From the NCBI GenBank assembly GCA_944383855.1, contig CALWRB010000033.1, forward strand, positions 1-64,000: a stretch of 64,000 bases of DNA, in the 5' to 3' direction. The notes beneath the pieces were generated by a model, which was given only the letters and a program-made list of their open reading frames with translations, was not told the origin of the DNA and made no database searches. Positions 25,628 through 28,055 of this stretch are shown here, piece by piece (the first letter of the stretch is position 1; each line of letters opens with the position of its first letter). Position numbers and translations under genes: made by a program. The stretch comes from an uncultured Lachnospiraceae bacterium. GTDB taxonomy: Bacteria > Bacillota > Clostridia > Lachnospirales > Anaerotignaceae.

Positions 25628-25656
25628 TTGCTTTTCTATCGAAACTGTGCTATGTT
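25628..25656 (+). promoter_or_regulatory. Promoter of the csoR-EamA operon
   Basis: -35 TTGCTT (25628-25633), 17-bp spacer, -10 TATGTT (25651-25656). The operator at 25661-25681 covers the expected transcription start. Confidence 0.6.
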
Positions 25657-25660
25657 TTCT

Positions 25661-25681
25661 ATATCCCCCCACAGGGGATAT
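25661..25681 (+). promoter_or_regulatory. CsoR-type operator
   Basis: Inverted repeat ATATCCCC (25661-25668), 5-bp centre, GGGGATAT (25674-25681). A C-run facing a G-run flanked by AT is the recognised shape of CsoR-family operators. It is 15 bp upstream of the repressor start, which suggests autorepression relieved by metal. Confidence 0.75.
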
Positions 25682-25696
25682 GAAGGAGGAATGGAT

Positions 25697-25963
25697 ATGT
25701 CACATCATCAAGAAACCAAACAAGTTCTTCACCGTCTTTCCAGAGCAATCGGGCACTTGGAAGCGGTGAAAAAAATGGTAGAAGAAGAACAGGACTGCTG
25801 CGAAATTTTAATTCAGCTTGCCGCCGTCAGATCCGCGATCCATAATACAGGAAAAGTCATTTTAAAAGACCATATTCAGCACTGTATCGCGGAAGCAGTA
25901 GAAAACCAAGACCAAAAAGCGCTTGATGACCTTTCTGTCGCGATCGATCGATTTATGAAATGA
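25697..25963 (+). CDS. CsoR-family metal-sensing repressor
   Basis: An 88-aa all-helical DNA-binding repressor (DUF156). Cys34, His59 and Cys63 have the exact spacing (25 and 4) of the copper(I) ligands in Bacillus CsoR, so copper is the best guess among copper, nickel and sulfide sensors. An extra Cys35 lies beside Cys34. I chose the ATG at 25697, 7 bp from GGAGG; the ATG at 25691 is too close. A palindromic operator lies upstream and an EamA transporter starts 9 bp downstream, so the pair forms an operon. Confidence 0.88.
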   Translation: MSHHQETKQVLHRLSRAIGHLEAVKKMVEEEQDCCEILIQLAAVRSAIHNTGKVILKDHIQHCIAEAVENQDQKALDDLSVAIDRFMK

Positions 25964-25972
25964 GGGATTTCT

Positions 25973-26848
25973 ATGCTATCGAAACAAACTGCAATTTTAT
26001 GCGCCATACTTGCCGCGGCATTATACGCGCTCAACTCTCCCCTCTCCAAACTGCTGTTAGAACAGATCCCGCCAACCTTGATGGCTGCGTTTTTATATCT
26101 TGGCGCAGGGATCGGTCTTAGTTTGCTGCGTTTCGTGCAGCGTGCCATGAAACAAGAACGAAACGAAGCGCCTTTAACCAAGCGGGAACTGCCTTACACC
26201 GCCGCTATGGTGCTGTTAGATATTGCCGCGCCGATTTTTCTGATGGTCGGGCTTACCATGACGACAGCGGCAAACGCTTCTTTACTGAATAACTTTGAAA
26301 TTGTTGCCACTTCCGTGATCGCGCTTTGTATCTTCCACGAAGCCATTTCCAAACGGCTTTGGGCAGCAATCGTATTAGTCACCATTTCCAGCATCGTTCT
26401 TTCTGTAGAAGACATGAGCAGTTTTTCCTTTTCCTTTGGCTCTGTTTTTGTATTGGCTGCCTGCGTCTGCTGGGGGCTGGAAAACAACTGCACGCGAATG
26501 CTTTCGCAAAAAGATCCTCTTGAAATCGTTGTCATCAAAGGCTTTGGCTCAGGCACCGGCTCTCTCCTGCTGGCATGGCTGCAAAACGAAACGGTGACCT
26601 CGGTCGGCTATGTCCTGCTTGCACTTCTGCTTGGATTTGTCGCATACGGCTTAAGTATCGTCTTTTATATCTATGCCCAACGCGGTCTTGGCGCCGCAAA
26701 AACCAGCACCTATTACGCTCTGGCGCCATTTATCGGTGTCGCTCTGTCGTTATTGATCTTTCGGGAGAAACCGACACTGTCTTTTACCATCGCACTGCTG
26801 ATCATGATTGCCGGCACTTATCTGGCGTCTACCGATACCGCAGATTAG
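25973..26848 (+). CDS. EamA/DMT-family transporter
   Basis: A 291-aa polytopic membrane protein with about ten hydrophobic segments arranged as two EamA repeats (LAAALYALNSPLSKLLL at the start of the first, VLAACVCWGLENNCTR at the start of the second). The family moves metabolites or, less often, metals. Placement directly behind a CsoR-type repressor suggests an exporter or importer controlled by a metal; the substrate is unknown. Confidence 0.87.
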   Translation: MLSKQTAILCAILAAALYALNSPLSKLLLEQIPPTLMAAFLYLGAGIGLSLLRFVQRAMKQERNEAPLTKRELPYTAAMVLLDIAAPIFLMVGLTMTTAANASLLNNFEIVATSVIALCIFHEAISKRLWAAIVLVTISSIVLSVEDMSSFSFSFGSVFVLAACVCWGLENNCTRMLSQKDPLEIVVIKGFGSGTGSLLLAWLQNETVTSVGYVLLALLLGFVAYGLSIVFYIYAQRGLGAAKTSTYYALAPFIGVALSLLIFREKPTLSFTIALLIMIAGTYLASTDTAD

Positions 26849-26873
26849 CGTCTTTTTTTCGCCTCAAACAAAA

Positions 26874-26929
26874 CAGCACCTTCCAAGTCGGTATTTTTTA
26901 CTACCTTTATTAGAAGATGCTGTTTTTTT
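26874..26929. terminator. Terminator between the EamA gene and trmL
   Basis: CAGCA-C-CTTC (from 26874) pairs with GAAG-A-TGCTG (to 26922) across a long loop, followed by a T-run. A-rich sequence on the left allows use by trmL as well. Confidence 0.65.
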
Positions 26930-26931
26930 GA

Positions 26932-27635: not shown

Positions 27636-28055
27636 ATGAAGGAGATTACGCAAACCTTACGTGAAAACGGTTTAAAGGTAACGCCGCAGCGTATTGCGAT
27701 TTATAATATGCTGTTGGAAACGCATGCGCATCCCACTGCAGAAACCATCTATAAAACGCTTTCTCCGCAGCACCCTGCCATGAGTCTTGCGACCATTTAC
27801 AAGACATTGGATTTCTTTAAACAAGTCGGTTTGGTGCAGGAGTTGAATGTCGGAGAATCCAGTTCGCGTTATGATGCTATGGTAACTCCCCACCCGCACT
27901 TGATTTGTACGCATTGCGGCAAAGTGGAAGATCTGATGATAGACGAGCTTTCGCATCTGCATCAAAAGCTGCCGCAGGATATCGGGTTTGATATCACCTT
28001 TGAGCAGCTGCTGTTCTACGGCATCTGCCACAGCTGTAAAGAAAAAGAAGCGTAA
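27636..28055 (+). CDS. perR: Fur-family regulator, PerR-like peroxide sensor
   Basis: A 139-aa Fur-fold repressor. Winged-helix N-terminus (residues 1-80: KVTPQRIAIYNML, then LATIYKTLDFF), the regulatory metal site with His in HAHPTAETIY and the SSRYD motif whose Asp marks PerR rather than Fur, and the structural zinc site CTHC...CHSC. The start at 27636 follows GAGGAGTGTTCTT. An operator-like palindrome overlaps its promoter. No peroxidase genes are adjacent, so it would act on distant targets. Confidence 0.88.
   Translation: MKEITQTLRENGLKVTPQRIAIYNMLLETHAHPTAETIYKTLSPQHPAMSLATIYKTLDFFKQVGLVQELNVGESSSRYDAMVTPHPHLICTHCGKVEDLMIDELSHLHQKLPQDIGFDITFEQLLFYGICHSCKEKEA

What the first reader, a model, noticed from the sequence alone, without database searches (positions are those of the whole stretch)
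25628..26848. Copper-type CsoR repressor controlling an EamA transporter
The repressor has the exact Cys34-His59-Cys63 spacing of copper(I)-binding CsoR, plus an adjacent extra cysteine, and a textbook palindromic operator overlapping the start of its own operon. The controlled gene is a DMT/EamA carrier instead of CopA or CopZ. Either an EamA protein handles copper or a copper chelate, or this repressor senses another ligand.
Basis: partly seen in the sequence, partly recalled or inferred. Interest (0 to 1): 0.6.

Follow-up and report, generated by a model that had tools for sequence, protein, structure and literature searches.

The report
Nickel-type repressor controlling a nickel exporter
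A small metal-sensing repressor and the membrane transporter beside it, read at first as a puzzling copper system, are most probably a nickel (possibly cobalt) alarm and export pump: the transporter is a relative of the known nickel exporter CnrT, and the repressor lacks the residue that marks copper sensors.

Summary
The anatomy reported is real: a PF02583 repressor (CDS 25697-25963, C34-H59-C63), a perfect inverted repeat just upstream (25661-25681) and an EamA gene 9 bp downstream (25973-26848), ending in a terminator. The copper reading does not hold. C-H-C spacing is shared by the nickel sensor InrS; the published marker of Cu(I) sensing is a Tyr before the first Cys. It is present in 17/17 CopA-linked paralogues of the same bacterial family and in 0/27 EamA- or nickel-gene-linked members of this subfamily (window: Asp). 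Relatives of the repressor sit beside NikA, CbiM, [NiFe]-hydrogenase, CODH and HypB genes. The EamA protein groups with CnrT, the nickel exporter of Cupriavidus (100/100 support, 11 own EamA paralogues excluded). The operator, ATCCCC-N5-GGGGAT, occurs once in the genome, matches the published 17-bp site of the nickel repressor NcrB, and is conserved at 11/11 EamA-linked loci but 1/31 other subfamily loci. Best reading: Ni(II), perhaps Co(II), releases the repressor and switches on a CnrT-type exporter. No experiment was possible; the metal is inferred. There is no EamA-copper paradox; the pairing is a new variant of known nickel efflux operons.

The parts
25661..25681 (.). Operator: perfect inverted repeat ATATCCCC-CCACA-GGGGATAT (core ATCCCC-N5-GGGGAT)
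   Evidence: at most 1 mismatch in 11/11 EamA-linked loci against 1/31 other subfamily loci; same pattern as the footprinted NcrB site ATCCCCCTGGGGGGGAT (PMC3046157)
25684..25689 (+). Shine-Dalgarno AGGAGG, 7 nt before ATG 25697
   Evidence: sequence
25697..25963 (+). CsoR/InrS-family metal-sensing repressor, 88 aa; W candidates H3/H4, X C34, Y H59, Z C63, A position D33, B position D78, C position A75
   Evidence: PF02583 4e-26; alignments; fingerprint
25973..26848 (+). CnrT-type DMT/EamA transporter, 291 aa, without the His-rich C-terminal tail of CnrT
   Evidence: PF00892; CnrT as query 163.5 bits; tree; tails; DMT fold
26864..26931 (+). Probable operon terminator (long hairpin followed by T-run)
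   Evidence: -21.4 kcal/mol, z -6.6

Best explanation
An autoregulated nickel (possibly nickel/cobalt) efflux operon. In low metal the repressor tetramer binds the palindrome at the operon's start and shuts off both genes. When cytoplasmic Ni(II) rises, it binds C34-H59-C63, perhaps with an N-terminal His, the repressor leaves the DNA, and the CnrT-type DMT protein is made and exports the metal across the membrane. Shown here: gene arrangement, operator and its conservation, membership of the transporter in the CnrT clade, absence of the copper-sensor Tyr, nickel-gene company of the repressor's relatives. Inferred: the identity of the metal, release on binding, direction of transport, and whether the substrate is the bare ion or a chelate.
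For: Transporter: CnrT of C. metallidurans finds the window EamA at 163.5 bits in the own genome, next EamA 26.7 bits; CnrT-type clade 100/100, excluding 11 own paralogues; in C. metallidurans CnrT is listed as a nickel exporter and DMT member (PMC11647595, PMC7019866); 22 of 29 further Clostridial members carry a His-rich tail like CnrT's; a homologue in Azospirillum lies beside a metal-sensing repressor gene and the Co/Ni exporter gene dmeF. Repressor: InrS among the best matches to solved structures; Tyr at the A position 17/17 in CopA-linked and 0/27 in EamA- and nickel-gene-linked proteins; relatives beside NikA (TIGR02294, 603 bits, cut-off 393), CbiM, CODH (TIGR01702), HypB (TIGR00073) and [NiFe]-hydrogenase genes. 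Operator: same ATCCCC-N5-GGGGAT as the nickel repressor NcrB, 11/11 EamA-linked loci.
Against: No biochemical or expression data. The InrS 'C'-position Glu is Ala here, so the InrS fingerprint is not fully met. The operator type is not nickel-specific: two loci of other CsoR types, one beside a P1B-ATPase gene, have it too (L109, L111). Some Proteobacterial CnrT-like genes lie in clusters with RND, CDF and copper-binding genes, others near no metal gene. The own genome shows no [NiFe]-hydrogenase, CODH or CbiM, so its need for nickel handling is unclear. InrS binds Cu(I) and Zn(II) tightly in vitro, so specificity cannot be read from sequence alone.
Confidence: 0.78

Rival explanations
1. Copper(I) sensor: the repressor is a true CsoR and the EamA protein exports copper or a copper chelate.
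For: Cys-His-Cys spacing identical to Mtb and Geobacillus CsoR; it is the only PF02583 protein found in the genome, and the genome's CopA (L184 4665-7199) has no CsoR beside it.
Against: No second-shell Tyr (D33), whereas 17/17 CopA-linked paralogues have it; in close relatives both regulators coexist, one at CopA and one at EamA; no operator of this type elsewhere in the genome, CopA promoter included; transporter belongs to the CnrT clade.
Confidence: 0.07
2. Cobalt or zinc, rather than nickel, is the physiological signal and cargo (cobalt is also allowed for in the best explanation).
For: The cnr system confers cobalt and nickel resistance; the Azospirillum neighbour DmeF is a Co/Ni exporter; CbiM is named a cobalt transporter, though the fused PDGLE domain in L087 is known (from memory) from nickel systems.
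Against: Nickel-specific company of the repressor subfamily: NikA, CODH, HypB, [NiFe]-hydrogenase; CnrT is listed for Ni(II) export, not Co(II).
Confidence: 0.15
3. Not a metal sensor: the thiols sense persulfide or formaldehyde (CstR- or FrmR-like) and the EamA protein exports a metabolite such as a thiol.
For: Vicinal Cys34-Cys35 in the window protein; EamA proteins in general export metabolites (established knowledge).
Against: C35 is not conserved; the Y-position His is invariant in the 18-member alignment; no rhodanese or sulfur-detoxification gene recognised in the neighbourhoods listed; transporter clade is CnrT.
Confidence: 0.04

Closest known systems
NcrB-NcrA/NcrC nickel resistance operon (Leptospirillum; Enterobacterial plasmids)
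   Same: PF02583 repressor, released by Ni(II), bound to a 17-bp ATCCCC-N5-GGGGAT repeat at the operon start; nickel exporters controlled
   Different: On the Enterobacter plasmid NcrA is an MFS protein and NcrC RcnA-like; NcrB itself is only a distant relative of the window repressor (38% over 68 residues)
InrS-NrsD (Synechocystis)
   Same: C-H-C ligands plus His-containing N-terminus, no Tyr at A position; nickel efflux control (PMC4235346)
   Different: The exporter NrsD is of a different family (MFS, from memory); InrS has Glu at the C position, absent here
CnrT (Cupriavidus metallidurans cnrYXHCBAT)
   Same: Transporter of the same DMT clade, 35-36% identity
   Different: CnrT has a tail with more than 20 His, works beside the CnrCBA system, and is controlled by sigma factor CnrH with CnrYX, not by a CsoR-type repressor
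CsoR-CopA copper operons of the same bacterial family
   Same: Same repressor superfamily and C-H-C ligands
   Different: Tyr at A position, CopA P1B-ATPase downstream; separate genes in genomes that also hold the EamA-linked repressor

Membership tests
CsoR/RcnR superfamily (PF02583) | Profile match over the whole domain | tested here: met
   91.5 bits, cut-off 22.8
Cu(I)-sensing CsoR | X-Y-Z ligands Cys-His-Cys | tested here: met
   C34-H59-C63; shared with InrS, so not diagnostic
Cu(I)-sensing CsoR | Second-shell Tyr at A and Glu at B | tested here: not met
   D33 and D78; Tyr in 17/17 CopA-linked paralogues; criterion from PMC4235346
Cu(I)-sensing CsoR | Linked to CopA/CopZ | tested here: not met
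   Next gene is CnrT-type EamA in this and 10 related loci
InrS-like Ni(II) sensor | C-H-C ligands, His N-terminal, no Tyr at A | tested here: met
   H3/H4, C34, D33, H59, C63
InrS-like Ni(II) sensor | Glu/Asp at C position | tested here: not met
   A75 aligned with InrS E95 (alignment, read by eye)
InrS-like Ni(II) sensor | Ni(II) releases the repressor from DNA | not testable with these tools
   needs purified protein
CstR (persulfide sensor) | No His at Y; Cys pair only (recalled, not looked up) | tested here: not met
   H59 invariant in the subfamily alignment
CnrT-type DMT exporter | DMT/EamA fold | tested here: met
   PF00892; AlphaFold model pLDDT 82, matches YddG 5i20 and LicB 7paf
CnrT-type DMT exporter | Groups with CnrT against other EamA proteins | tested here: met
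   100/100 branch; 163.5 against 26.7 bits
CnrT-type DMT exporter | His-rich C-terminal tail (common in the clade, not known to be required) | tested here: not met
   No His in the last 70 residues; other members linked to this repressor subfamily also lack the tail
CnrT-type DMT exporter | Exports Ni(II) | not testable with these tools
   needs transport assay

The most novel reading that the evidence does not exclude
In Clostridia the CnrT-type exporter exists in two forms: with a His-rich tail and usually no repressor beside it, or tail-less and under its own nickel-sensing repressor with a His-containing N-terminus. The gate against needless metal loss may have moved from the transporter's tail to transcriptional control.
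Probability: 0.25. Interest if true: 0.5.

Novelty: new variant of a known kind. Interest (0 to 1): 0.32.

Why it matters
It removes an apparent paradox (copper repressor, EamA cargo) and gives a testable substrate for one branch of the huge, mostly unassigned EamA family. It also warns that the C-H-C spacing alone does not make a copper sensor, and offers a second-shell residue plus gene company as a better guide in gut Clostridia; two plasmid records here already name an ncrB gene 'copper-sensing CsoR'.

Tried and rejected
Copper reading: rejected on the second-shell Tyr, on coexisting CopA-linked CsoR genes, and on the transporter's clade. Adjacent extra cysteine as a persulfide or redox switch: C35 is not conserved. 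CntI-type metallophore export (pseudopaline EamA): considered as a precedent only (papers found, not read); CntI itself was not compared. NcrA as the homologue of the EamA protein: its 10 TM helices suggested it, but on the Enterobacter plasmid NcrA is annotated MFS. Sigma-70 promoter scan: no consensus site at the operator. A first operator count used a wrong anchor for some loci and is replaced. Own-genome searches for [NiFe]-hydrogenase, CODH and CbiM were empty. Tree of the repressors: 89 columns, many forks unresolved; the clade of CopA-linked proteins with the two copper references is the better supported part (98/90).

Full report
What is there. The repeat occurs once in the 1.99-Mb genome. 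The genome is 87% complete in 59 contigs and lies in the family that holds Anaerotignum lactatifermentans: a 179,511-base contig of that species has the same length as the contig of same-family genome G001. The other genome of the same genus lacks both genes (G017), so the operon looks like an accessory trait.

Is the repressor a copper sensor? C34-H59-C63 has the spacing of Mtb CsoR, but InrS, a nickel sensor, has the same three ligands. Foster et al. 2014 (PMC4235346) state that a Tyr just before the first Cys appears to predict Cu(I) selectivity. I tested that in this bacterial family and class. All 17 distinct repressors next to a CopA gene have Tyr there. None of 9 next to EamA and none of 18 next to nickel-type genes do; all have Asp (Fisher 1.5e-12, an overstatement because the sequences are related; 2 of the 18 lie beside an FmdE/FecCD pair whose link to nickel is only presumed). 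Close relatives such as G004 and G005 carry both kinds, one at CopA and one at EamA. The B position is Asp instead of Glu, and the C position Ala instead of the Glu of InrS, so the protein is InrS-like in primary ligands, not an InrS by every criterion. The extra Cys35 is not conserved.

Company of the repressor. Relatives were taken from a scan of named genomes and from a search with the subfamily alignment in 391 Clostridial genomes (scores fall off gradually, loci above about 108 bits were used). Besides EamA, members lie beside CbiM-type ECF transporters (5 loci), nickel/peptide ABC transporters (3 loci, one with a NikA above the curated cut-off), [NiFe]-hydrogenase operons with the RICGIC and DPCxxC motifs, a CODH catalytic subunit and HypB. 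Many have a strongly His-rich N-terminus. None of these partners is a copper gene.

The transporter. tblastn against plasmid records names CnrT, the 'nickel diffusion facilitator', among its homologues. The reverse search with CnrT of strain CH34 in the own genome gives the window EamA at 163.5 bits and the next EamA at 26.7. A tree of 41 proteins puts the window protein, CnrT and their kin on one branch (100/100), apart from 11 other EamA proteins of the same genome. CnrT is described as an inner-membrane exporter acting on Ni(II), with DmeF and CnrCBA (PMC11647595; PMC9045368). The His-rich tail of CnrT is kept by 22 of 29 further Clostridial members but by none of the members linked to this repressor subfamily. 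One locus with a different CsoR type (L196) has both. The AlphaFold model has the DMT fold (pLDDT 82; YddG, LicB). Residues conserved in the CnrT clade but not in the paralogues include E109, C164, N172 and K189.

The operator. ATCCCC-N5-GGGGAT is also the core of the footprinted NcrB site ATCCCCCTGGGGGGGAT, which NcrB leaves when Ni(II) is added (PMC3046157). It lies within 100 bp upstream of the repressor's first conserved helix at 11 of 11 EamA-linked loci (at most one mismatch) and at 1 of 31 other loci of the subfamily; that one precedes a repressor-P-type-ATPase operon. In two Clostridium loci it precedes a MATE gene that lies in front of the repressor gene (L038, L039). So within the subfamily the site goes with efflux-type operons. 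It is not nickel-specific by itself: L109 and L111, of other repressor types, also have it.

How it probably works. Apo-repressor blocks the promoter; Ni(II), or Co(II), fills the C-H-C site and frees the DNA; the CnrT-type protein exports the metal. Arrangement, operator conservation and clade membership are shown; metal, release and transport are inferred. Confidence that nickel or cobalt is the signal and cargo: 0.78. Copper 0.07.

Limits. No own nickel enzyme was found with the families searched; urease and others were not searched. Counts come from related sequences and are not independent events. The own CopA gene has no CsoR beside it, so a second role of the window repressor in copper control is unlikely from the absence of an operator there but not excluded.

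Noticed in passing
L085-L107 (e.g. L087, L091, L094): The same repressor subfamily sits next to nickel uptake and nickel-enzyme genes (CbiMQO, NikABC, [NiFe]-hydrogenase) without the ATCCCC-N5-GGGGAT site. A repressor released by metal is an odd regulator for uptake genes; the operators and logic there are unknown.
   Followed up: partly
L038 2581, L039 2582, L090: In these loci the repressor follows a MATE-family gene; in L038 and L039 (Clostridium) the nickel-type operator lies in front of the MATE gene. A MATE protein may be another metal-related efflux partner.
   Followed up: no
L195-L223: 22 of 29 sampled Clostridial CnrT-type transporters end in a His-rich tail (14-28 His); nearly all have no CsoR-type repressor in the short flanks held, so how they are controlled is open.
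   Followed up: partly
L184 4665-7199 (own genome contig C42): The genome's CopA copper ATPase gene has no CsoR beside it and no CsoR-type operator, unlike CopA genes of many related genomes; its regulator is unknown.
   Followed up: partly
window 27642-28052: A PerR-type Fur protein (NF052545, above its cut-off) lies downstream of trmL with no obvious peroxide-defence gene next to it.
   Followed up: no
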